Source: Chitinophaga agri
GTDB taxonomy: Bacteria > Bacteroidota > Bacteroidia > Chitinophagales > Chitinophagaceae
Reading direction: 5' to 3'
Length of the DNA stretch: 64,000 bases
Assembly: GCF_010093065.1 (NCBI RefSeq)
Contig: NZ_CP048113.1
Location: forward strand, 3,534,001 to 3,598,000
Positions within the stretch are counted from its first letter, which is position 1; the number at the start of each line of letters is the position of its first letter. Under the pieces are notes generated by a model, which was not told the DNA's origin, searched no databases, and worked only from the letters and a program-made list of their open reading frames with translations. Positions 38,306 to 52,187 of the stretch are shown piece by piece. The position numbers were made by a program, and so were the translations under genes.

Positions 38306-41300
38306 TTACTGTGCGAGCATGAATCTCAACGTCAGTCCTCCTCTTGTATTTGTGATCGGATACGCTGTTGAAATAACCGGTATCGTCTGGCGGCGGTCGT
38401 AGAAGAAACGCAGGTTTAAACGATTATTCACTACGTAGTCGATGGATGGAGAGATACCGATCACCTTCTGACCACTGGTAGGTATGACCAGATCAGCATC
38501 CAGTCGGTTGTTCACCGTCCGGTCATCACGGAAGCTCATATCCAGCCGGAAGTTCATATCATTCTGTACCTTCTTGCCATCTTTCTCCTGGCCGAGGAAT
38601 GCAAACTTCACATTACGCAGGCGGTAGCTACCACCCAGTGTCAGCTCGGTAGAGCGGAGCTCAGTCAGCTGGTAGTCGATCAGGCTAAGACTTAATGAAC
38701 GGCTCTTCTTGAATTCCACACGCAGGTTAAGGCTGCTCACGAACGTTACATCTATACCCAGTAACGGTGCAAACTGTTCCGTCATAGTGATGTTCGGGAT
38801 CAGGAAGTAAGGGATGTAGTTACCAGATACGGTATCCACAAATCCCGGATAACCTGCCAGACGCGGATCCTCGTACAGCAGTGCAGAGTTATAGGAACTC
38901 ATACTCAGCGTACCGACATAAGCATGTGTCAGTGATACATTGGTGAAGAGCGATTTGAAAGGTTCCAGTTTTGTCAGACCATTATAAGCCACACGCCAGT
39001 TCGGGCGAGGTATATAGTTACTGAACGGATTGCTACGGACATTTGACAGGCCTGCACTTCTCAGTAATCCGATCTTCGAAGGATCTTTACCTGTATATGC
39101 TGCTAGGAATGCCGGCACGAGTACATCCTGTGCATAACGGCCGTAACCATAAGCATATAAAGGATCTTTCGGGTTACGGTCAAAGCCGGCATTATAAGGG
39201 TTTGCTCCACCCAGACGGTCTGATATGGTCAGACGGTACCGCTGGAAGTCGTTAAATGTCTTTGTCGAACCAGTTATTTTATCAATACCACCGAACAGCG
39301 TTTTCACTGCCATATAAGAGATCTCAAATCCACCGGCATCATACGGACTTAAATGCTGGTAACCGGAATCACCGAGGTTCTTGAATAACTCTGTATGCGT
39401 CTTGCTGAATGATTTGGTCATGCTCAGGTCAATACGCAGGTCATTGGCAGGCTCCAGTTGCGCCTGTATCTGCCAGCGCTGCGTGAACTGTTGCTGGTAT
39501 TGAATATTGAATAATGTGTCTGGTGTGATCAGGCCTTTCTTCGCAAAGTTGTCCAGCCACGCTTTATCGGGTTGTTTACCAAACACGAATGGCACACCTG
39601 GCTGCCAGCTGGCCCAGTTCATACCCAGCACCTTGGTACTATCGATATAACCTGGTAAGCGGGTATTACCATTTTCAGAGTAATCCAGACTGACACGTTT
39701 CAGGGCGAGTAATGGTTTCATCACTGCTTTCAGTATTGGCGATACCTCTACTGATTTTTCCTGTTTGACTGGTTGCTTATTAGGTCCTGTACCGGGTCGG
39801 TTATTATTATTCTGCTGCGGTCGTTTCTTCTGCTGCGTACCAGTGATGGCTCGCAGGAAGGCCGATTTACTATATAATTCCGAGAACTTGAACTCCGCCA
39901 TAACGGTTTTCTGGTTGGAGTTCTCTATTGCATTACCCAGATATCTGGCCAGGAGGGAAGCACCTGTCCAGCGGTAGTCTGTTGAATAACCGATCGCGAT
40001 GCTTGTCCAGCTAAGCGCAGGTATTTTAGAGGTAGGTAATGTATAGGTCACATTCGCCGTATGATAGTAGTTGGTCGTTCTGCCCAGTTTAAAGAAGTTA
40101 TTCCACAAACTGTCTTTCTTCTCTTTCGAATTGATACGCCCCTGTGGCTCATCAATACGTGCGTTATTCACCGCGTTAAAGTCGATTGTCAGACTACGGG
40201 AGAGATCCCACTTCAGACCGTAGTACCTGTCGAAGGTGAAGTACTTGTTGTAGGTCTCCGGTAACTTATAATTAGAATCATCACCACCAACATTACGGAT
40301 ACGGGTAGCACCGAACTGACGGGTCACGTCTACCCGGAAGCTGATGAGGGATGGTATATAGTTAAAGTTAAAGTCACGGATCAGGTCCAGCCATGGCGTC
40401 TTCGCCTTGAACAGCTTTTTGAACGGTGTTATGAACTTACTCTGTCCGGTGAAGGTATAGCCCAGACCACCTCTGTGTTTGGTCAGTTCATCACTTTCAA
40501 TGATCGGGTTATGGCTGGTAGTCTGTGTAAAGGAATAGCTGATATCAAAGTTTTCGATATCCCACAACCGGTTACGTTTTCTATTCATATTCAGACGACG
40601 CACGTTTGTGAAGTTCAGACTCTTGATAGCCGTAAAATCCTGTGCAGCCTTGCGGATTGAGTCACGTTCATAATCACTGCGCGCCATTCTGAGTTTATCT
40701 TTCAGTTTGATGTCCAGGTCATACGGATCGTATTCCGGAGAGCTGACAGCTCTTGAATAACCGGCATATACCGGGATGGAGAGGCTGGCTTTCTTCGGCA
40801 GGAGTTTACCCAGGTCGAGGTTCGCTGCTGCATCATATTGCAGGTAGTTGTCACGGAAACGTTCATTTACACGCTGGTCAAGATTACCGAAACCAGCAGT
40901 GTGCATATTACCCGATACACTGATCGTACCCAGGTCAGCCAGTTGAACGTCCACACGGCCCATACCGGCATAACCACCTTTTTCATCCAGACCGGAGAGA
41001 CGCAATTCGTTGAACCAAACCTCACCACATCTTTGGAGACCGTCATCTTTCGGGTTTGTCACACCGAGCATGATCGTTCTCACATCACCCAGGTTCGGGT
41101 TACCTACTACGCTCATATAGTTACCCAGTTCATCAGGAACAGTATATGGCAGTAATGGGGAACAGGTATCACACTGGTTACGCTGTAGTTTCAGATTGGT
41201 CAGTTTGCTCATCAACAGGTTCACATCATTCTTTTCCGGCCATACTTCCATTGGCTGGTTATGGTTCCACTCTGTTACTTTCAGTGGGATCTGATATTCG

Positions 41301-44300
41301 TAGTAGTTTTCTACGAAGTCGCTACCCATACGGATCACCGCACGCAGTTGTCCGTCTTTCAGAGAGTTCGGATCATTAGAAGGCTCAGCGTGCAGGTACA
41401 TCTGAATCGTTTTGTACTGACGCAGGTCCATGTTCAGGTTTTTGGTTACACCACGGGTGTCACCATCGGCGAGATCGCACACCTGGATGGACATCGCCTG
41501 TTCGTTCAGCTGCAGTACGGTACTGTTGGTGCTGAGCGTGTTCTGACGTACCACGCCCGGAGGCAGTACGTAGTTGACAGGTTTACGGGTAGAGTTTTCT
41601 TCAATGTTAACTGCTGAGGTATTGAAGAGGGTATTATCATCATTCGGAACAGGGTCGCCTGCCTGCAGTTTATAATTATACTGACGCCACTGGTTACGGA
41701 TGAGTTGCAGTTTACCGAAACGTACTACGATCGAATCTTCAAATCCTGTCAGGAACATACGCATGAAACGGATGGACTTGAAGTCTGGGATATTACCTAC
41801 TTTCTTGTCGAAGTTGTTGATCGGAATTTTGAACTGATACCAGTTTTCCAGTCTGCTCTGACCATTCGCCAGTAAGATATTCCTGGTCACTTTATCCACA
41901 ATGTAGTTGGTACCTACACCCATTTTCGGACGGAGGTTCACACGGTACTGGAAGTATTCTTCGGTTTCGTTGAGTGTGTTGTCCCTGTTCAGGTCTTCAG
42001 ACTCGGGTATGTTGGTAGCTGCAGAAGAGTAAATGCTGTTACCGGTAGATACAGGTGAGTTACCTTCCGGATTACTGAAATGCTTATAACGTGAAAGGAT
42101 GTCTATTCCCTTGTGGTCATAATCGGCATTCCTGTAATGCTTATAGTCATCGTTAGAAGGGTCTCTGGCTGCATCTTTATAAACGTCAGAGTTAATACCG
42201 AAGTTAGCCGCCAGTCTGTCCAGGTAAGACCTGCGGAAATTTACCTCATCACCACTCTGCAAACCATCATATCCCACGTCCTGATAACGGCGGATCTCAG
42301 GGTCATTGTCAAATGCCTGTGTGATCTGCTGCTGGAATTTAGGGATACGGCCCCAGATAGAAGAGTCAGTCTTATTTAGTTCGGTAGTTGGATTTGGTAA
42401 ACCGTTCTCGAAGAACTTACGGGAGTCTTTCAGGATATCCTCAGACACGTTACCCAGGTTGAAATACAGTTGACCACCAGGATTCGTAGAATCGACAATG
42501 AAAGGGTCCTGGATCCAGAACTCGATGAACTCCACGTTCTGGGTCTGGAAGTCACTGTTATCGATCGCACGCATGATACCCGCCCATTTCTTTCTTGGAT
42601 TCAGCAGTTTTCCGGCGGCAGTAATACTGTCTCTGCCAGCCGTAAAGTTATATGGACCTCTGTCCTGCGGATAATATGCCAGGTCAAGGGTACTCAGCTG
42701 GCTCTGTCCGAAGTCGGTAGAACGATTTGGGAAGATCTCCTGCTGATACACCAAACGGGTACGGGGGTCAGACTGCATTTCCCCATCAATCCCTTCCGGT
42801 AACGCAGGCGATTTTGGTATCTGCAAAGTCGGTTCTATAATATACCAGGCCAGTTTTGCCCTGTTGGCCCCATAGCTCAGCTGATCGTTACGGTCAGCCT
42901 CAGGGAAGAGGATAGTGCCGGCACTGTCAGACGCATCTTTCGGCGTAGAAGCCAATGCCCAGGCAGTAGCCGGGAACTTCAGGTCGTAACCACTCTGAGA
43001 ACCTTCAAAGTCATCGATGAAGATCTGTCCCTGGTTGCTACCCGCTGCATTCACCAGTTTACTATGCCCGGGGAATAACTTGGCCACCTCACCGGTGAAC
43101 ATGATATTGGAAGGCGTATTACTCTGGAAGTTAGGCAGTTTATTCAGGAAGCGGGTCAGTCCTTTCCACTGTGAGTTATAGTTTACGTCGAAGCCTACCA
43201 CCGTGTTCTTGATCGGGTCTTCGCCATAGTTCACTTTTTGGTAGTAAGGTCTTTCACTCATTCTGGCGATCGTCGATCCAAGGGTCAGGTTATCATTGAC
43301 CACATAGTCAAAGCGGGTACCGAAGTAGTTCCGCACCTGGGTACCAAATGCGGCATTGTTCTCAAACTGCACGTTGATAGCGACACCTGAGTTGAGGATA
43401 CCTGCGTTGATGATCTTGATACGACCCAGATTATAATCAATAATGTAATCTACATTCTCACGCAGTTGCTGGCCACCGGCAGTTACTGTTACAGATCCCG
43501 GCGGAATGTTATAACCACCGAGTGTGATTTCGGAAGAGTTACTTGATTTATAGGAGCCTTTTACGATATACCTGTTCAGCTGCGGGAACTGTTGTGCTAC
43601 CACTTTGATGGAATCATACAGTACCTTATACATATACTGTCGTTCCAGGGCGGCATTTCCACCGAAGGCTTTCTGAATACCCTGGGCGAATGGTTCCAGT
43701 ACGGGGAACATGATCCTACCCGTCTGTGAGTTGATCGTATAGCCTTCCACATAGTCAAACACACCATCCGGCTGCGGGTCATTCTGGTTATTCAGTCTGT
43801 CCAGGTTAAGGATGGATATCAGTGGAGCACCTTCCCATACCCCCTGTGCATCCGGCAAATAACGTTTATCACTTGGCGCACGGGAATCTGTACCAGGATC
43901 TTTATAATATACGTCCAGTTTAAAGTCGGCCCTGTTGATCTGATAAGCGCCTGTAGAATAGACGTTTTTCATCATCAGGTCCCAGATAGGGAGGTTTGGA
44001 CGGGCGGAAGTAGCTTTCAGCATTTTGAGGAACAGGATACGCTGGTTAGCGCTGTTGTTCTGATCTGGCGGAACATCCTGAGAGAACTCACCCACCTGGT
44101 ATACACGACCATTGTAGGTATACTGGTAGGCAATAGCTAAAACTTCATCTGCCTGTAGCTGCTGGTTCAGGGAGATGAAGCCGAGTTGTCTGTTGATCGT
44201 ATATTCAGTGGAATCCAGTTTTCTGGCAAACGTCTTTTCGTATTCCTGTACGGCCTGTAGGCCGAGGCTCTGCAGGCGGCTGACCACCGTTCCCGTATAT

Positions 44301-45550
44301 CGGCTCATGGGGTCAGAAATAATTTTAGCGTAGAGATCGTTCAGCTTGTTATCAGTAAGCCTGGAGTTAGACAATACATTAATGGAGGTATTATAGGGAG
44401 CGTATTCACCAAGGTCCATCAAACCGACGATATCCCTGGTATTGGTGGTGGCGCCTGTCTTGTTGGTCACCCACACCTCGATACGGTTCACATAGGCAAG
44501 GGAGCGTATCACCGGCAGGTTGCTCATTGCGTAGTTAAAGGTATCGCGGAAGAACTGCCCCATGAGGAAGTGACGGTTATCTTCATACTCGTCAGCCTTG
44601 AGGTTGAAGTCCTGTACCTGGGTACCGCCCTTGATCATCATATTCTGTTTCTGCGACTTCTGGTTAGATAGTACGCTGGTAACGGTCAGACGGCCAAACT
44701 GCAGCTGGGTCTTGATACCGAACAGGGATTGTACCCCCGAGATGAGCGAGCTACGTAGGGGGAAGCTCACGTTACCGGCTTCTATCTTTTTAATGATCTC
44801 ATCATCATAGCCGGTATATTCCAGTTTGATCTGGTTTTCGAAGTCGAAGGTGGACTGGGTGTTATAGTTAGTGATCAGTTTCAGTTTGTCCCCTATCTTA
44901 CCGGTCAGGTTCATATTGATATTCATATCAAATGCGAAACCTCCCGTTTTACGGGCCTGTTCTGTCAGCACGGGGTTTTTGATATTCTGCCCTTCATAAC
45001 CGAAGGTCAGTTCCAGGCTACCCTGGGGCTTGATATCCACCTTGTTACCACCGAATATCCTGTCAAACAGTTTACTGCCTTTATACAGGTCAGGACCGTT
45101 TCCTTTCTGGTTAAGCGATCCGAGGGTACTGGCACGTTTCATCCAGTAATCCTGTTCGCTTTTGGCAGACTGGATCTTATAATACTCATCGAAGCTGAGG
45201 TAGGTAGGATTACGGTAGTAGTGGTCGCCTATCTTTTCTGTTACTGTGTATTGTTTTGTTACCGGGTCATAATCAACAGTACGGGATATACCAGCAGGAT
45301 CCTTCAAATCTATCTGATTCTTAACGGGATCGGTCATACTGGTCCCATGCCTGTCCCGGATAGGGTACTTTAAGGTATCCTTCTTTACGGTATCAGGAGC
45401 AGGAGGTATGGTATAATTTTTGTTTGGTTGCCAGTATCTGTTAGTATAGTTGTTATTATAACCCGAACGATTCCTTGCCGCAGTGTCGAAAATAAACAAT
45501 GAAACAACTCCTATTACTGCAATAGCACCATAATATGTCTTCCTTGACAA
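38306..45550 (-). CDS. sprA: SprA (Sov): outer-membrane translocon of the type IX secretion system
   Basis: Forms the very large outer-membrane barrel through which type IX cargo leaves the cell; it is also needed for gliding in motile relatives. At 2414 residues it has the size expected for SprA. The N-terminus has one hydrophobic export signal (YYGAIAVIGVVSLFIF). Characteristic stretches include GSLELTFGYEGQNIKNP near residue 180, FIDDFEGSQSGYDLKFPATAWALAS near 860 (written here only as the motif FIDDFEGSQ), many amphipathic strands, and a C-terminal GGLTLRFMLAQ. No ATG exists near the 5' end; a TTG at 45550 gives MSRKTYYGAI and is the best start. It follows ruvA after 38 bases. Secreted type B proteins at 28-33 kb are likely clients. 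Confidence 0.95.
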   Translation of the reverse strand: MSRKTYYGAIAVIGVVSLFIFDTAARNRSGYNNNYTNRYWQPNKNYTIPPAPDTVKKDTLKYPIRDRHGTSMTDPVKNQIDLKDPAGISRTVDYDPVTKQYTVTEKIGDHYYRNPTYLSFDEYYKIQSAKSEQDYWMKRASTLGSLNQKGNGPDLYKGSKLFDRIFGGNKVDIKPQGSLELTFGYEGQNIKNPVLTEQARKTGGFAFDMNINMNLTGKIGDKLKLITNYNTQSTFDFENQIKLEYTGYDDEIIKKIEAGNVSFPLRSSLISGVQSLFGIKTQLQFGRLTVTSVLSNQKSQKQNMMIKGGTQVQDFNLKADEYEDNRHFLMGQFFRDTFNYAMSNLPVIRSLAYVNRIEVWVTNKTGATTNTRDIVGLMDLGEYAPYNTSINVLSNSRLTDNKLNDLYAKIISDPMSRYTGTVVSRLQSLGLQAVQEYEKTFARKLDSTEYTINRQLGFISLNQQLQADEVLAIAYQYTYNGRVYQVGEFSQDVPPDQNNSANQRILFLKMLKATSARPNLPIWDLMMKNVYSTGAYQINRADFKLDVYYKDPGTDSRAPSDKRYLPDAQGVWEGAPLISILNLDRLNNQNDPQPDGVFDYVEGYTINSQTGRIMFPVLEPFAQGIQKAFGGNAALERQYMYKVLYDSIKVVAQQFPQLNRYIVKGSYKSSNSSEITLGGYNIPPGSVTVTAGGQQLRENVDYIIDYNLGRIKIINAGILNSGVAINVQFENNAAFGTQVRNYFGTRFDYVVNDNLTLGSTIARMSERPYYQKVNYGEDPIKNTVVGFDVNYNSQWKGLTRFLNKLPNFQSNTPSNIMFTGEVAKLFPGHSKLVNAAGSNQGQIFIDDFEGSQSGYDLKFPATAWALASTPKDASDSAGTILFPEADRNDQLSYGANRAKLAWYIIEPTLQIPKSPALPEGIDGEMQSDPRTRLVYQQEIFPNRSTDFGQSQLSTLDLAYYPQDRGPYNFTAGRDSITAAGKLLNPRKKWAGIMRAIDNSDFQTQNVEFIEFWIQDPFIVDSTNPGGQLYFNLGNVSEDILKDSRKFFENGLPNPTTELNKTDSSIWGRIPKFQQQITQAFDNDPEIRRYQDVGYDGLQSGDEVNFRRSYLDRLAANFGINSDVYKDAARDPSNDDYKHYRNADYDHKGIDILSRYKHFSNPEGNSPVSTGNSIYSSAATNIPESEDLNRDNTLNETEEYFQYRVNLRPKMGVGTNYIVDKVTRNILLANGQSRLENWYQFKIPINNFDKKVGNIPDFKSIRFMRMFLTGFEDSIVVRFGKLQLIRNQWRQYNYKLQAGDPVPNDDNTLFNTSAVNIEENSTRKPVNYVLPPGVVRQNTLSTNSTVLQLNEQAMSIQVCDLADGDTRGVTKNLNMDLRQYKTIQMYLHAEPSNDPNSLKDGQLRAVIRMGSDFVENYYEYQIPLKVTEWNHNQPMEVWPEKNDVNLLMSKLTNLKLQRNQCDTCSPLLPYTVPDELGNYMSVVGNPNLGDVRTIMLGVTNPKDDGLQRCGEVWFNELRLSGLDEKGGYAGMGRVDVQLADLGTISVSGNMHTAGFGNLDQRVNERFRDNYLQYDAAANLDLGKLLPKKASLSIPVYAGYSRAVSSPEYDPYDLDIKLKDKLRMARSDYERDSIRKAAQDFTAIKSLNFTNVRRLNMNRKRNRLWDIENFDISYSFTQTTSHNPIIESDELTKHRGGLGYTFTGQSKFITPFKKLFKAKTPWLDLIRDFNFNYIPSLISFRVDVTRQFGATRIRNVGGDDSNYKLPETYNKYFTFDRYYGLKWDLSRSLTIDFNAVNNARIDEPQGRINSKEKKDSLWNNFFKLGRTTNYYHTANVTYTLPTSKIPALSWTSIAIGYSTDYRWTGASLLARYLGNAIENSNQKTVMAEFKFSELYSKSAFLRAITGTQQKKRPQQNNNNRPGTGPNKQPVKQEKSVEVSPILKAVMKPLLALKRVSLDYSENGNTRLPGYIDSTKVLGMNWASWQPGVPFVFGKQPDKAWLDNFAKKGLITPDTLFNIQYQQQFTQRWQIQAQLEPANDLRIDLSMTKSFSKTHTELFKNLGDSGYQHLSPYDAGGFEISYMAVKTLFGGIDKITGSTKTFNDFQRYRLTISDRLGGANPYNAGFDRNPKDPLYAYGYGRYAQDVLVPAFLAAYTGKDPSKIGLLRSAGLSNVRSNPFSNYIPRPNWRVAYNGLTKLEPFKSLFTNVSLTHAYVGTLSMSSYNSALLYEDPRLAGYPGFVDTVSGNYIPYFLIPNITMTEQFAPLLGIDVTFVSSLNLRVEFKKSRSLSLSLIDYQLTELRSTELTLGGSYRLRNVKFAFLGQEKDGKKVQNDMNFRLDMSFRDDRTVNNRLDADLVIPTSGQKVIGISPSIDYVVNNRLNLRFFYDRRQTIPVISTAYPITNTRGGLTLRFMLAQ

Positions 45551-47337: not shown

Positions 47338-47382
47338 AAAAAAGGACAGGCCTTTCTCTTACGGAAAAGCCTGTCCTTTTAT
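47338..47382 (+). terminator. Terminator after fabH
   Basis: Stem AAAAGGACAGGC/GCCTGTCCTTTT around a 17-base loop, with T-rich sequence following on the plus strand and A-rich sequence preceding, so it may also serve the convergent gene at 47432. Confidence 0.8.
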
Positions 47383-47431: not shown

Positions 47432-49306
47432 TTATCCAAATGACGGTAAACTATATCCCAGCTTCAGCTTTCCTTCCACCACATCTGCACTGATCTGGCC
47501 TCCCATTTTATCCATAAAGTCTTTACAGATCACCAGTGTCACCGACAGATCGTCTCCTTTTCTGTATTCAAACAAGTGAGCGCCCATATCAGGGGTAAAT
47601 GCAGGCGCTTCGAACAGGATACTGACTTTTACCAGGTCATCGACCGCTGCACGCACCTGGATAATACCGATTCCCCTGGAAATCACTGTTGCACCATGTA
47701 GCAGACTTCTGTTAATGAATAGCAGCATTTCCTGGTCACCAGCCAGGCACAATCCGGACGGTATATCCAACACTACCTGCTGCTGATCTGCCGAATGTGC
47801 CACCTGTTCAAATAACAATTTGAGATCGCAGGGCGCCGGGCTATACACGAAGCCTGATAACTGAGACCTGATCCAGCGGAGGATGTTATCAAAGATAACC
47901 AGCGTTTTCCGGGAGGACATCACCGCTTCGTCAATGGTCCGTTGCATAGCCGCCTGGTCCATATCCTTGTTCCGAAACAGCGCCGAGACGTTGATAATAT
48001 CATTCAGCGGCTCCCTGAAATCCCTGGCCAGTATAGCGATCAGTTTATTCTTAAAGTCATCATGTACACTCAGTTGCTGGTTCTTTTCGGAGATCGCATC
48101 ATTCATTTCCCGTAATAATTCTTCCTGACGACGAAGATTTTTGTACGACCTGTAACGGGCCAGTGTAAAGCCAGCCATCAATAGCAGGCATCCGGCCAGG
48201 AAACCTATCAGCTGCAAACGGCTTTTATGTTTCATATTACTATGCGCGATCCTTTGTTCCTGCACCTTGTTGCTCAACTGCCACTCATTGAGCTCCTGCT
48301 CTTTCAGGAAGTAATCCAGGTAGTTCATATGATTGCTGGACCTTAGCTTCAGCCGTTGCCTGACTATATCCAGCAGCGCTTTCCCATAATATGCTTTCTT
48401 GGCTTCATTATTTCCTTTTGCATAATAACGGTACAGACTGACCACCGTTGGCAACATCACATTCAGGTATCCTGCGCGACTTCCTATTGCGAAGGCCTTC
48501 TCTTTGGCAGGTAAAGCATCGGCAGGATATCCATGCTGTTTATATACCTCAATATGGTCCAGCAGATCAATGGCTACTCCGATCAGTCCTTCCTTCAGTG
48601 CCTTATCGGCCAGCTCGTTGATACGATGCACTGCCTTTGCCCCTTCTCCGTCCCGCATCCATTCATCGGCTTCAAAAGCCTGGATGTAATAAATATCCCT
48701 GCTACCGGGATATTTACGAATGATCTCTTTGGATTTCTCCAGGGCCCATTTCACGGAATCTCTGCGGGTACTGTCTTCTTCATACCGGGAGGCGAAATTG
48801 ATCAGTACCAGGCTGTAAATAGAATCCTGTGTCAGTGACTGTCCCAGGTTCATAGCCTGATACAGGTACTGGTCAGCTTCAGGCTTCATACCTTCAAAAA
48901 AATGGAATACGCTTAGGTTCATCAGCACCTGACACACGTTCGGCTGATCATTCAGTTCACGGTAAAGCAACAGCGCCTTAAATCCATATTCTATAGCCTG
49001 CTTCTGATTATCCTTCAATGCATAGAATATACTCAGGTTATTCAGGGCGCCAGCCAGTCCTCTGCTATCATGCAGCCGTGTGGCAATACCACGCGCTTTA
49101 ACAGCATACCAGAAACAACTGTCGATATTGCTCAGGTGGTACTGCATACCCAGCTGGTTGAGTACATCAGTGTACCGGATACTGTCCGTTTGTTGTAACA
49201 GACTGCTCCTTAGCTGGCGGATGACATTGTCCTGTGCATACACTTTCCCGCAGGTCAGCAAACCTGCCAGTAGTATAAAAACGATATGTATGGATCCTTT
49301 CTTCAA
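47432..49306 (-). CDS. TPR-domain histidine-kinase homologue with degenerate catalytic core (pseudokinase)
   Basis: A 624-residue paralogue of the next gene upstream. It has a signal peptide (ends KVYAQ), TPR helices at about 40-330, one membrane helix near 370-387 (LIGFLAGCLLLMAGFTL), a short coiled coil, and a kinase-like C-terminal half. The phosphoacceptor position is Arg (LARDFREPL, Arg428) where the paralogue has His. The N-box is INRSLLHGATVIS, without the Asn-x-x-x-Phe core, and the G1 box DxGxG is replaced by EAPAFTP. Yet LFEYRKGDD and VICKDFMDKMGG remain. It therefore probably cannot autophosphorylate or bind ATP normally. The TTG start is 7 bases after the paralogue's stop, so the two are co-transcribed. 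A role as partner or brake of the active kinase is inference. Confidence 0.88.
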   Translation of the reverse strand: MKKGSIHIVFILLAGLLTCGKVYAQDNVIRQLRSSLLQQTDSIRYTDVLNQLGMQYHLSNIDSCFWYAVKARGIATRLHDSRGLAGALNNLSIFYALKDNQKQAIEYGFKALLLYRELNDQPNVCQVLMNLSVFHFFEGMKPEADQYLYQAMNLGQSLTQDSIYSLVLINFASRYEEDSTRRDSVKWALEKSKEIIRKYPGSRDIYYIQAFEADEWMRDGEGAKAVHRINELADKALKEGLIGVAIDLLDHIEVYKQHGYPADALPAKEKAFAIGSRAGYLNVMLPTVVSLYRYYAKGNNEAKKAYYGKALLDIVRQRLKLRSSNHMNYLDYFLKEQELNEWQLSNKVQEQRIAHSNMKHKSRLQLIGFLAGCLLLMAGFTLARYRSYKNLRRQEELLREMNDAISEKNQQLSVHDDFKNKLIAILARDFREPLNDIINVSALFRNKDMDQAAMQRTIDEAVMSSRKTLVIFDNILRWIRSQLSGFVYSPAPCDLKLLFEQVAHSADQQQVVLDIPSGLCLAGDQEMLLFINRSLLHGATVISRGIGIIQVRAAVDDLVKVSILFEAPAFTPDMGAHLFEYRKGDDLSVTLVICKDFMDKMGGQISADVVEGKLKLGYSLPSFG

Positions 49307-49313
49307 AATAGTT

Positions 49314-51287
49314 CTATGACGGCTTATTTACCAATGGTAAAGTGTAGGTAAACGTACTGCCTTTACCCACATTATTAACTCCTCTGATCACACCTCCCAT
49401 TTTATCCATAAAGTCTTTACAGATGATCAGTGCCAGTCCGGCCCCTCCCTTGTGCTTACTACTACCCTTTTCCCGGTTCCGGTATTCAAACAGGTGCAGC
49501 AGCATATCGGGATCAATACCCCGGCCTTCATCGATAAAAGCAATAGTAACATGGTCGCCTGAGATGGTGGAAGTGATCCGCAGTTCGCTACCGGCAGGAC
49601 TAAATTTGATCGCATTGTGCAACAGGTTACGGTGTACGAACTGTAGCATTTCCTGATCTGCCAGCACCGTCACCTCTTCAGAGATGGCCACTGTCACCCG
49701 TATCCTTTTTTCGATACAGTTATCTCTCAGTATTTCCAGCGCATCCTTTACCATGGTGGCTGGTACACATGCTACGGGTGTGTATACAAACCCGCTCAGC
49801 TGCGACCTGATCCAGCGCAGGATACTGTCGAATATGTGAAGGGTATGGGCTGACTTGGTTTCCAGTTGCCGGAACAGTGCCGTCGCCTCTTCATAGGAAA
49901 GTGAATGATCTTTGAGCAGATTGGTAATATCTATGATGTGATGCAGGGGTACACGGAAGTCATGCGCGATAAGGGATATCAGTTTATTCTTGAAGTCGTC
50001 CTGGGTTCGCAGTAATGCATTCTTCTCGCTGATCTCCCGGTTCTTTTCTCCCAGCCGTGCTGCATGCTGGCGGGAACGGCGGTGAGAGCGGTTCACATCG
50101 GCTAACAACAGGATGATCAGGATCAGCATAACACTAAGGAAGATAATTACCGCATAGCGGTTACGGCTTTCCATCGCTTTCTTGTCCAGGATCTGTTGCT
50201 GATAATCATGTTGGAGCTGTAATGCACGCAGTTTCTTTTCCTGCATGTAATAGTCAATATAATCCAGCTCCCCCTGTGTCTTACTCTGTTCTTCCTTTTC
50301 CACAATATCCAGCATCATATTAGCATACAGATGGGCCGAATCTTCATCATGCCTGGCATCATACCATGTATAAAGCTTTGATACAACCGGCAGGGCCAGT
50401 TCCCGGAACCCACCGATCATTGCCAGGCGGGCCATTTGCCGCTGGGCAGCCAGTGAGTCCGGCAGGTGATTACGAATGCGGTAGGTAGCCAGGTGGGAAT
50501 ATCCATACATGGCGTGGTAGACGTAGCCTTTTCTTTCGGATTCAGCGATCAGTGAGATCAGGCGGGCGATCCCCTCCGTTACGTCCATTTCAGCATAAAT
50601 AAGCTCCTGGGCCTGCAACATGCCGGTATAGATCAGCAGTCTTTCATCAGCCGCTTTTACAGCCATACGCCGGGCTGTTGTCAACGCCAGATAAGCCTGT
50701 TTTCTGTCTACAAAATCACTACTATGGTGGTTGCGGAGGTCATTGGCGTAGATAAAGTAGTAGTTAGCCAGTAATGTACGCAGGAGCGTGTCATTCTTCA
50801 GCCGGGTGCTCATGGACATTGCCCGTTTCATGTAGGTAGCCGCTTCCTGGTACTGTTTTTCAAACTGATAATATACACCCAGGTGCATGCTGGTCTGACA
50901 TATGCCTGTACTGTCACCCAGCTGCTTATACAAATTCAGTGCATCTGTGTAAAAACGGAAAGATAAGTAGCTGTTATCACGATAAGTATAGTAGCTACCG
51001 AGGCCGCGGTAGGCGGCGGCTTCACCTGATTTATAACCTATCCGCTGAGCCACCTCTCTGGCGCGGCAGAGGTAAAAAAAACAGGTATCCAGCTGGCGGT
51101 GCTGATACTGTCCCGCCAACTGATTCATGAGGTCGACATACTGCACGCTATCTGTTGTACCTTTTACCGCTGACTTCAGCTGGTGGATGATATTGACTTG
51201 TGCGTTTGCCTTATTTTGCCGGATAATGCACCCGGCCAAAACGATCATGAGGCAGATTAATATGTTTTTGTTACCGAAGATGTACAA
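49314..51287 (-). CDS. TPR-domain sensor histidine kinase
   Basis: Predicted membrane sensor kinase of 657 residues. Layout: export signal (to about residue 30, ANAQ), periplasmic TPR-like helices at about 35-330, a membrane helix near 378-396 (VIIFLSVMLILIILLLADV), a coiled coil, then HisKA and HATPase domains. The phosphoacceptor is His442 in LIAHDFRVPLHHI. The ATP site has N-box NLLHNAIKFSPAG, G1 DEGRGIDPDM and G2 GGAGLALIICKDFMDKMGG. No receiver or output domain is fused and no response regulator gene is adjacent, so it is an orphan kinase. The start used is a TTG at 51287. An ATG at 51248 lies within the signal. A lipobox-like LAGC near residue 20 leaves the signal type open. Confidence 0.9.
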   Translation of the reverse strand: MYIFGNKNILICLMIVLAGCIIRQNKANAQVNIIHQLKSAVKGTTDSVQYVDLMNQLAGQYQHRQLDTCFFYLCRAREVAQRIGYKSGEAAAYRGLGSYYTYRDNSYLSFRFYTDALNLYKQLGDSTGICQTSMHLGVYYQFEKQYQEAATYMKRAMSMSTRLKNDTLLRTLLANYYFIYANDLRNHHSSDFVDRKQAYLALTTARRMAVKAADERLLIYTGMLQAQELIYAEMDVTEGIARLISLIAESERKGYVYHAMYGYSHLATYRIRNHLPDSLAAQRQMARLAMIGGFRELALPVVSKLYTWYDARHDEDSAHLYANMMLDIVEKEEQSKTQGELDYIDYYMQEKKLRALQLQHDYQQQILDKKAMESRNRYAVIIFLSVMLILIILLLADVNRSHRRSRQHAARLGEKNREISEKNALLRTQDDFKNKLISLIAHDFRVPLHHIIDITNLLKDHSLSYEEATALFRQLETKSAHTLHIFDSILRWIRSQLSGFVYTPVACVPATMVKDALEILRDNCIEKRIRVTVAISEEVTVLADQEMLQFVHRNLLHNAIKFSPAGSELRITSTISGDHVTIAFIDEGRGIDPDMLLHLFEYRNREKGSSKHKGGAGLALIICKDFMDKMGGVIRGVNNVGKGSTFTYTLPLVNKPS

Positions 51288-51491: not shown

Positions 51492-52187
51492 CTATATCTC
51501 AAACACTAATCCCCTTCTCTTTAATTCTTCATATTTCTGTTTATCAAAGCGGTATAGGTGTGCGCCTTTCTTTGAGGTTGTTTTATCCTTTTCTTCCAGT
51601 TTCTCGAGCACGTCCATTGACAGGATCTTCTTCCGGAAATTACGTTTATCCAGTTCTTTCTGGTAGATCTCTTCATACAGACTACGAAGCTGTGAGAGTG
51701 TAAATTTTTCAGGCAGCAGTTCGAATCCGATGGGGTGGAAATGTGCGTTATCTCTCAGTTTTTTCAATGCGTCAGCGATCATCTGACGGTGGTCAAAGAT
51801 CAGGTCCGGGATCTGATGTAATTCCAGCCAGTGCGCACTAAATTGCTGTGTAGGATTTTGTTCGTGTTCCCGGATACGGATAAGCGCATAATAAGCCATG
51901 GAGATAACACGTGCACCCGTATCACGCCCCACATCACCATAACAGGCGAGTTGGTCCATGTAAATATTTTCGAGACCTGTTGTCTGCTTCAATACCCTGG
52001 CCGCAGCGTCGTCCATACTTTCGCCGTCCTGGAGGAACCCGCCCATGAGCGACCATTCACCTTGCATGGGGTCTACTTTTCGCTGCATGATCAGCAGCTT
52101 GAGCTTACTGTTTTCAAATCCAAAAATGATACAATCTACAGCTACCAGATGTCGAGGTACATTCGCATAAAATGATTGTGCGCTCAT
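51492..52187 (-). CDS. Nudix-related transcriptional regulator (NrtR/AraR-like)
   Basis: A 231-residue protein with an N-terminal Nudix fold and a C-terminal winged-helix region. The Nudix domain covers about 10-145 (VDCIIFGFENSKLKLLIMQR and WSLMGGFLQDGES). The Nudix box should read GX5EX7REUXEEXGU. Here it is GFLQDGESMDDAAARVLKQTTGL, so the leading G and E are kept but the metal-binding RE-x-x-EE becomes RV-x-x-QT. Hydrolase activity is therefore unlikely. The C-terminus (FTLSQLRSLYEEIYQKELDKRNFRKKI) is the DNA-binding region of the NrtR family, to which the Bacteroides arabinose regulator belongs. The effector and targets are unknown; the neighbouring DinB and GNAT genes give no clue. Confidence 0.85.
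   Translation of the reverse strand: MSAQSFYANVPRHLVAVDCIIFGFENSKLKLLIMQRKVDPMQGEWSLMGGFLQDGESMDDAAARVLKQTTGLENIYMDQLACYGDVGRDTGARVISMAYYALIRIREHEQNPTQQFSAHWLELHQIPDLIFDHRQMIADALKKLRDNAHFHPIGFELLPEKFTLSQLRSLYEEIYQKELDKRNFRKKILSMDVLEKLEEKDKTTSKKGAHLYRFDKQKYEELKRRGLVFEI

What the first reader, a model, noticed from the sequence alone, without database searches (positions are those of the whole stretch)
47432..51287. Tandem sensor kinase and pseudokinase with shared TPR sensor architecture
Two adjacent, co-transcribed paralogues share signal, TPR, membrane helix and kinase-like regions, down to matching strings such as ILRWIRSQLSGFVY and ICKDFMDKMGG. The upstream one keeps His442, N-box and G boxes. 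The downstream one has Arg428 at the His position (AGG codon), has lost the N-box Asn and has no DxGxG. Because flanking structure is retained over full length without frameshifts, this looks like a maintained pseudokinase rather than decay. Inference: it could regulate its partner by heterodimerisation, with TPR domains sensing the same or different signals. No response regulator is nearby.
Basis: partly seen in the sequence, partly recalled or inferred. Interest (0 to 1): 0.75.

Follow-up and report, generated by a model that had tools for sequence, protein, structure and literature searches.

The report
Conserved kinase–pseudokinase sensor pair in Chitinophaga
Many Chitinophaga bacteria carry a membrane sensor kinase next to an apparently non-catalytic twin that evolution has kept; the two evolve in step, which suggests that they work as one mixed receptor.

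Summary
Window 49314–51287 (−) encodes an intact TPR–TM–histidine kinase (hk, 657 aa). Seven nt downstream, 47432–49306 (−) encodes a full-length paralogue (ps, 624 aa, 33% identity) with Arg428 (AGG) at the His site, no N-box Asn and no G boxes. The genus is Chitinophaga. The pair sits beside NUDIX, normally before fabH, in 53 of 79 genus genomes; five have an extra pair elsewhere. In 57 loci analysed, every array starts with a kinase keeping His, N-box and G1 (G2 in 56), followed by one or two ps. All 66 ps lack the N-box Asn and G2 pattern; 54 lack His (N24, R22, T6, S2), so CA decay most simply came first. ps is under purifying selection (ω 0.078; hk 0.091), most strongly in the DHp (0.030). 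hk and ps relative rates correlate more than any other of 21 gene pairs at the locus (rho 0.72; next 0.52). No receiver domain lies within 94 kb. Best reading: a regulatory pseudo-subunit that dimerises with its kinase through TM/DHp, as proposed for FasB–FasC. Heterodimerisation and output are inferred, not shown.

The parts
49314..51287 (-). TPR sensor histidine kinase (hk), 657 aa; His442, N-box Asn, DEGRG and GGAG motifs intact
50250..51212 (-). hk TPR region, predicted periplasmic (about residues 26-346)
   Evidence: Pfam TPR_12 2.5e-9; AlphaFold2 helices; TPR matches in PDB
49782..50003 (-). hk DHp (residues 429-502) with phosphoacceptor His442 at 49964-49962
49317..49781 (-). hk CA/ATPase domain (residues 503-657)
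   Evidence: HATPase_c 4.8e-21
47432..49306 (-). Pseudokinase paralogue (ps), 624 aa, TTG start 7 nt after the hk stop
48317..49240 (-). ps TPR region, predicted periplasmic (about residues 23-330)
   Evidence: model; TPR_12 2.2e-5, below cutoff
48155..48214 (-). ps transmembrane helix (about residues 365-384, read from the sequence), running into a coiled-coil linker
   Evidence: sequence; long helix in the model
47843..48064 (-). ps DHp (residues 415-488); Arg428 (AGG, 48025-48023) in place of His; most constrained part of ps (omega 0.030)
47435..47842 (-). ps pseudo-CA (residues 489-624): CA fold kept in the model, N/G1/G2 boxes lost, lid region short
47340..47380 (-). Terminator-like hairpin (17 bp stem) after ps, before the convergent gene labelled fabH

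Best explanation
A dedicated kinase-pseudokinase receptor pair. One duplication, at or near the base of Chitinophaga, produced ps downstream of a TPR sensor kinase. ps lost ATP binding early and was kept as a non-catalytic subunit. Proposed working: ps sits in the inner membrane beside hk with TPR repeats in the periplasm; the TM/coiled-coil/DHp segments of one hk and one ps pack into a mixed four-helix DHp bundle; ps gates autophosphorylation of hk allosterically; the phosphate is carried on hk His442 and passed to a response regulator encoded elsewhere. Because ps no longer needs a phosphoacceptor, its His site has drifted (His/Asn/Arg/Thr/Ser) while the surrounding DHp base stayed fixed. 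Shown here: kinase motifs intact in hk, degenerate ATP motifs in ps, purifying selection, one ps clade, strict pairing, rate covariation. Inferred: physical heterodimer, allosteric gating, cis phosphorylation, the target regulator and the sign of regulation.
Against: No direct evidence of physical contact. Shared rates could come from co-transcription or common expression rather than binding; the control genes are not in the same transcription unit. A cruder version of the rate test was less clear-cut: partial correlation of pairwise distances gave hk-ps 0.83 but also 0.78 for ruvA-nudix. Six of 66 ps lack most of the TPR array while their hk keeps it. Twelve of 66 ps keep His, so a phosphoacceptor role in those is not excluded. 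No cognate response regulator is known. DHp and linker have low model confidence (block pLDDT 51-63 in ps, 50-67 in hk for residues 401 to 490 or 500), and no complex could be predicted. Searches scored a limited number of candidates per genome (8), and one pair was missed at first, so stand-alone ps may have escaped.
Confidence: 0.68

Rival explanations
1. DivL-like decoy: ps does not dimerise with hk but binds a response regulator (or its phospho-form) through its DHp, as sensor or sink.
For: The DHp segment is kept and the His is dispensable, as in DivL (passages read).
Against: The distal DHp half, where regulator specificity usually lies (recalled), is the variable part of ps (0.44), but it is variable in hk too (0.51), so this weighs little. 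DivL keeps its N and G boxes; ps does not. Strict pairing and hk-ps rate covariation point to hk as the partner.
Confidence: 0.13
2. FasC-like phosphoacceptor subunit: hk CA phosphorylates the His of ps in trans, and ps passes the phosphate on.
For: 12 of 66 ps keep His in register with the H+1 Asp column; FasB-FasC is a proposed precedent (passages read). L076 (His) lies inside an otherwise Asn clade, which suggests a regain.
Against: 54 of 66, including the window protein, cannot accept phosphate at that site, and His and non-His states change at least 4 times on the tree, so it cannot be the general mechanism.
Confidence: 0.1
3. Dispensable duplicate in slow decay.
For: CA is the least constrained domain (omega .166); most of the TPR array is lost in six short ps.
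Against: All 66 counted ps are open reading frames (six of them short forms; they were selected as open frames, so broken copies would not have been counted; fragments seen in L114, a 65%-complete genome, were set aside); omega 0.078 overall; DHp omega 0.030, lower than in hk; no analysed paired-clade kinase stands without a ps.
Confidence: 0.03
4. Membrane TPR scaffold: only the periplasmic TPR and TM matter, and the kinase-like part is a passive anchor.
For: TPR omega is low (.065); TPR-TPR is the highest cross-domain rate correlation.
Against: Short ps drop most of the TPR and keep TM-DHp-pseudo-CA (6 of 66), and a further genome drops it in both partners. The kept part is the transmitter, not the TPR.
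Confidence: 0.06

Closest known systems
FasB-FasC (group A Streptococcus FasBCA; PMC12675982, search listing and passages)
   Same: Two sensor-kinase-like proteins in one locus; two-hybrid heterodimer; one partner (FasC) proposed to be a pseudokinase whose kinase domain is dispensable.
   Different: FasC H246 is a likely phosphorylation site; here His is gone in 54 of 66 ps. Fas has its regulator FasA in the locus; here none was found. No TPR sensor was named in the passages read.
RocA-CovS (PMC7028121, passages read)
   Same: Membrane pseudokinase with degenerate CA and a dispensable His that interacts with an intact sensor kinase and modulates it.
   Different: RocA has six putative TM helices and a different sensor. 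That rocA lies apart from covRS is recalled, not read.
[not shown]
   Same: Conserved pseudo-histidine kinase with a substituted phosphorylation site.
   Different: DivL has Tyr and keeps the N, G1, F and G2 boxes; it senses DivK~P. ps has lost the ATP boxes and sits beside its own paralogous kinase.
FimS-type TPR sensor kinases (Porphyromonas FimS/FimR; PMC11053733, search listing and passages; NCBIfam NF053520)
   Same: Periplasmic TPR sensor and TM before a kinase part; best NCBIfam match of both proteins.
   Different: Scores 127 and 79.8 bits against a cutoff of 600, so not members; FimS acts with FimR, and no pseudokinase partner was named in the passages read.
ChrS CA-frameshift pseudokinase with HrrS (PMC9491836, passages read)
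   Same: A CA-dead kinase that alters signalling through a paralogous kinase without needing its own His.
   Different: Laboratory-evolved mutation, not a conserved gene; the truncated form did not show significant heterodimerisation in two-hybrid.

Membership tests
Histidine-kinase pseudokinase | Homology to a histidine kinase over the transmitter | tested here: met
   [not shown]
Histidine-kinase pseudokinase | Loss of ATP-binding motifs | tested here: met
   0/66 N-box Asn, 0/66 G2 pattern, 4/66 DxGxG, 27/66 a DxG remnant; lid span median 16 against 25 in hk, though 10 of 66 have 25
Histidine-kinase pseudokinase | Loss of phosphoacceptor His | tested here: met
   Arg in the window; lost in 54 of 66 across the genus, kept in 12
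Histidine-kinase pseudokinase | Maintained by selection | tested here: met
   omega 0.078, 12 genomes, one-ratio model without confidence interval
Histidine-kinase pseudokinase | No kinase activity | not testable with these tools
   needs biochemistry; inferred from motifs only
FasBC-type kinase/pseudokinase heterodimer | Adjacent genes, one catalytic and one non-catalytic | tested here: met
   57 loci with 57 hk and 66 ps
FasBC-type kinase/pseudokinase heterodimer | Physical heterodimerisation | not testable with these tools
   only indirect: rate covariation
FasBC-type kinase/pseudokinase heterodimer | Phosphoacceptor His retained in the pseudokinase | tested here: not met
   window ps has Arg428; 12 of 66 keep His
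DivL | Tyr at the His site with N and G boxes otherwise retained | tested here: not met
   no Tyr among 66; N and G2 boxes lost
FimS (NCBIfam NF053520) | Score above curated cutoff 600 bits | tested here: not met
   hk 127, ps 79.8 bits
Classical two-component operon | Cognate response regulator adjacent | tested here: not met
   no PF00072 match in the window

The most novel reading that the evidence does not exclude
An obligate, asymmetric receptor in which every signalling dimer contains one kinase and one catalytically dead paralogue, comparable in logic to HER2-HER3 (comparison recalled). In arrays of one kinase and two differently substituted pseudokinases (Thr/Ser copy and Arg copy), the kinase could choose between partners. 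Presence or absence of His in natural ps would be an evolutionary read-out of whether phosphorylation runs in cis or in trans.
Probability: 0.4. Interest if true: 0.72.

Novelty: new variant of a known kind. Interest (0 to 1): 0.52.

Why it matters
The histidine-kinase pseudokinases met in the papers read here are single cases (DivL, RocA, FasC). This is a genus-wide set of at least 57 loci with an intact partner, an old origin, measured constraint and natural variation at the lost His. It allows a direct test of whether bacterial sensor kinases can be obligate heterodimers, and of what a DHp domain does when it can carry neither ATP nor phosphate. Several ps proteins carry names such as 'sensor histidine kinase' or 'signal transduction histidine kinase' in public sources, so kinase counts in this genus are probably inflated by them.

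Tried and rejected
Strain-specific decay was rejected. A nearby response regulator was sought and not found in the window, nor among 20 neighbour proteins sampled at seven off-site loci: five extra-pair loci (L063, L065, L068, L070, L079) and two lone-kinase loci (L066, L071). One of the 20 is an AraC-type protein, one an ECF sigma factor and one a cNMP-binding protein; none has a receiver domain at E 0.001. The rest of those neighbourhoods was not scanned.

Whether the duplication predates the split from the lone-kinase clade is unresolved (ps + paired hk held as one clade: p-AU 0.0535). A link of His retention to hk hairpin length or the H+4 residue was looked at by eye and gave nothing: where the pattern matched, the DHp segment is 71 residues in all but two proteins (70 and 72).

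The statement 'ps has no DxGxG' holds for the window but not everywhere: 4 of 66 keep DxGxG and 27 of 66 a DxG string in the zone. The zero at the G1 Asp column is affected by a one-residue alignment shift in that clade. One regex hit for an N-box-like string (L069) lies in the G1 zone, not at the N-box. Among paired hk, one (L064) has GKDAG at the G2 position.

Rate covariation was computed three ways: pairwise distances (hk-ps partial r 0.83, ruvA-nudix 0.78), branch rates on a tree that included hk and ps (rho 0.645, next 0.425), and branch rates on a tree from the five flanking genes only (0.721, next 0.517). The last is quoted. It used 37 of 52 syntenic loci, those with one full-length ps and all flanking genes.

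Genomes first listed without the pair at this site: 27 of 79. In 20 of 27, the NUDIX and fabH matches lie under about 1.1 kb apart. In the other 7 the stretch was read: one (G074) holds a divergent pair that the first search had not brought up; in the remaining 6 no open frame matched hk or ps, save a 103-aa frame in G077 with a weak hit to the over-long N-terminus of one hk.

Outside the genus, 195 Chitinophagaceae genomes were searched (that set includes 4 or more genus genomes; 6 candidates scored per genome): 13 had a match at E 1e-20 or better, 3 of them in the genus. Ten loci from 9 of the other 10 genomes were read: all 10 show His, N-box and G1 patterns, 5 of 10 the G2 pattern as written; no second family gene was found beside them. 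One partial match (G161) was not read.

Rows dropped before counts: three fragments in L114 (genome 65% complete) and two unrelated 722-723 aa kinases in L110/L113. The L191 pair was found after the counts and is in none of them except '53 of 79'. In L089 the contig ends before fabH would appear.
Full report
WHAT IS THERE. The interval holds two genes on the − strand: hk (49314–51287, 657 aa) then ps (47432–49306, 624 aa). ps starts with TTG 7 nt after the hk stop, and a terminator-like hairpin at 47380–47340 follows it, before a convergent gene. Both have a signal-like N-terminus and one TM helix (read from the sequence), a TPR region, a long helix into a DHp, and a CA-like end. They align over nearly the whole length at 33% identity, E 5.9e-95; the next relative in the genome scores 7.1e-10. 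hk has HATPase_c at 4.8e-21; ps has none. hk His442 corresponds to ps Arg428, codon AGG. The labels fabH, fabD, ruvA, dinB, gnat and SprA are mine, recalled from the sequences; only the NUDIX label has a call behind it.

GENUS-WIDE PICTURE. Named contigs of the same lengths identify the genus as Chitinophaga, and species names below rest on that match. A search of 148 genomes, 79 of them in the genus counting the window's own, was followed by reading 80 loci. The order NUDIX – hk – ps – (convergent) fabH is kept in 52 genus genomes, mostly with fabD and ruvA in place; in L089 the contig ends before fabH, and L053, L110 and L113 have extra DNA or a gene in between. A later check added one more genome, G074 = C. 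terrae. Five genomes have an additional pair elsewhere, and nine loci have hk followed by two ps. The counted set is 57 loci with 57 hk and 66 ps. All 66 ps follow a family gene on the same strand, at −92 to +25 nt measured from the first possible start codon, and every array begins with a kinase.

CATALYTIC RESIDUES. hk: 57/57 His, N-box Asn, G1 Asp and G1 Gly; 56/57 first G2 Gly. ps: His site N24, R22, H12, T6, S2; N-box Asn 0/66; G2 pattern 0/66 against 56/57 in hk; DxGxG 4/66 and a DxG remnant 27/66. The H+1 Asp (65/66), H+5 Pro, and the Trp and Gln of helix α2 (66/66 each) remain. The span holding the ATP lid is 16 residues at the median against 25 in hk, although 10 ps have 25. On a tree made without the His column, the site changes state at least 8 times, and between His and non-His at least 4 times; parsimony does not fix how many are losses and how many regains, but L076 (His inside an Asn clade) looks like a regain. 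Because all ps lack the N-box and G2 box but not all lack His, loss of ATP binding is most simply the shared, older event.

SELECTION. One-ratio codon models on 12 close genomes give ω 0.078 for ps and 0.091 for hk. By domain, ps/hk: TPR .065/.083, TM-linker .038/.082, DHp .030/.054, CA .166/.119. No confidence intervals were computed, and the first 30 residues were left out. The pattern is opposite to decay: the segment that lost its phosphoacceptor is the most constrained in ps. Across 27 divergent ps and 29 divergent hk, the DHp base stays conserved in ps (.82 and .77; hk .91 and .78), whereas the N-box–G2 zone falls to .40 against .62.

ORIGIN. ps form one clade and paired hk another (with 100/99 and 100/98 support). 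By eye the two subtrees run largely parallel, and the extra pairs of four genomes (L065, L068, L070, L079) cluster together on both sides, so kinase and pseudokinase were copied together. Whether the duplication came before or after the split from the lone-kinase clade is not resolved (p-AU 0.0535). Outside the genus only kinases with intact motifs, without a second family gene beside them, were found in what was read (10 loci).

PARTNERSHIP. Relative branch rates on a tree built from five neighbouring genes correlate between hk and ps with rho 0.72 (65 branches, 37 genomes), the highest of 21 gene pairs; the next, 0.52, is fabH–fabD, two enzymes of one pathway by their recalled names and so a fair positive control. 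Leaving out the fastest lineage (L105) gives 0.71. Two other versions also put hk–ps first but with smaller or less distinct margins (0.83 against 0.78; 0.645 against 0.425). By domain, TPR–TPR is 0.68 and TM/DHp–TM/DHp 0.57. In C. silvatica (L105) both proteins have long terminal branches (share 0.10 each; the five other genes 0.03–0.06). In its relative C. terrae (L191) both have lost most of the TPR array but kept TM–DHp–(pseudo)CA. Against a simple TPR–TPR partnership, six short ps have lost most TPR repeats while their hk keeps full length. Co-transcription may itself cause rate similarity, so this is support, not proof.

NO LOCAL OUTPUT. 132 receiver-domain matches exist in the genome, none in the window. 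Two other matches of the ps query, one over its kinase part (7877355–7878029) and one over its TPR part (3193656–3193988), lie about 0.2 and 1.0 kb from a receiver domain; whether those two are TPR kinases was not checked. At the present locus no receiver gene follows the kinase; a pseudokinase does.

MECHANISM. The most economical reading is a regulatory non-catalytic subunit. A heterodimer through TM and DHp is inferred from paralogy (histidine kinases dimerise through DHp; established knowledge), from the conserved DHp base and from rate covariation. In a mixed dimer of the window's proteins only hk can bind ATP and only hk His442 can take phosphate, so the pair must work in cis or within hk–hk dimers that ps modulates. 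The sign of regulation is unknown. That no ps-less kinase was found inside the paired-kinase clade favours an obligate co-receptor over an optional inhibitor.

COMPARISON. FasB–FasC, RocA–CovS, DivL and the evolved ChrS pseudokinase show that the kind exists; of these papers I saw passages. RcsD, an inactive kinase domain with an Hpt (passages), is a further relative in logic, but there the authors consider a 1:1 heterodimer with RcsC unlikely, which warns against assuming mixed dimers. Full-text searches for 'Chitinophaga' + 'histidine kinase' + 'pseudokinase' (0 papers) and 'Bacteroidetes' + 'histidine kinase' + 'pseudokinase' (2 papers, unrelated by listing) found no report of this pair; subscription journals are mostly not held, so this is a limited statement. 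I class it as a new variant of a known kind.

Noticed in passing
   Followed up: partly
L066, L071, L075, L077, L083-L085, L087, L088, L091, L093, L095, L096, L098, L103, L104: Lone relatives of hk in genus genomes without ps sit at another site, with PNPOx, amino-acid-kinase-family and EF-Ts genes nearby where checked; 20 of 23 unpaired kinases have Asn instead of Asp in the G1 box.
   Followed up: partly
L072, L086, L090, L094, L097, L099, L101, L102, L063: Nine loci with one kinase followed by two pseudokinases; in the eight at the fabH site the two copies have different His substitutes (Thr/Ser and Arg).
   Followed up: partly
L110:3992-6160, L113:3998-6169: An additional, unrelated histidine kinase (722-723 aa, NMSHEMRTPL) between the short ps and fabH.
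   Followed up: no
   Followed up: no
window 51492-52187: NUDIX protein with best NCBIfam match to an ADP-ribose-responsive Nudix repressor (135.5 bits, cutoff 400); neighbour of the pair, also matched in the 27 genus genomes first listed without it.
   Followed up: no
window 38306-45550: 2414-aa ORF that looks like a SprA-type gliding/type 9 secretion protein (name from recall).
   Followed up: no
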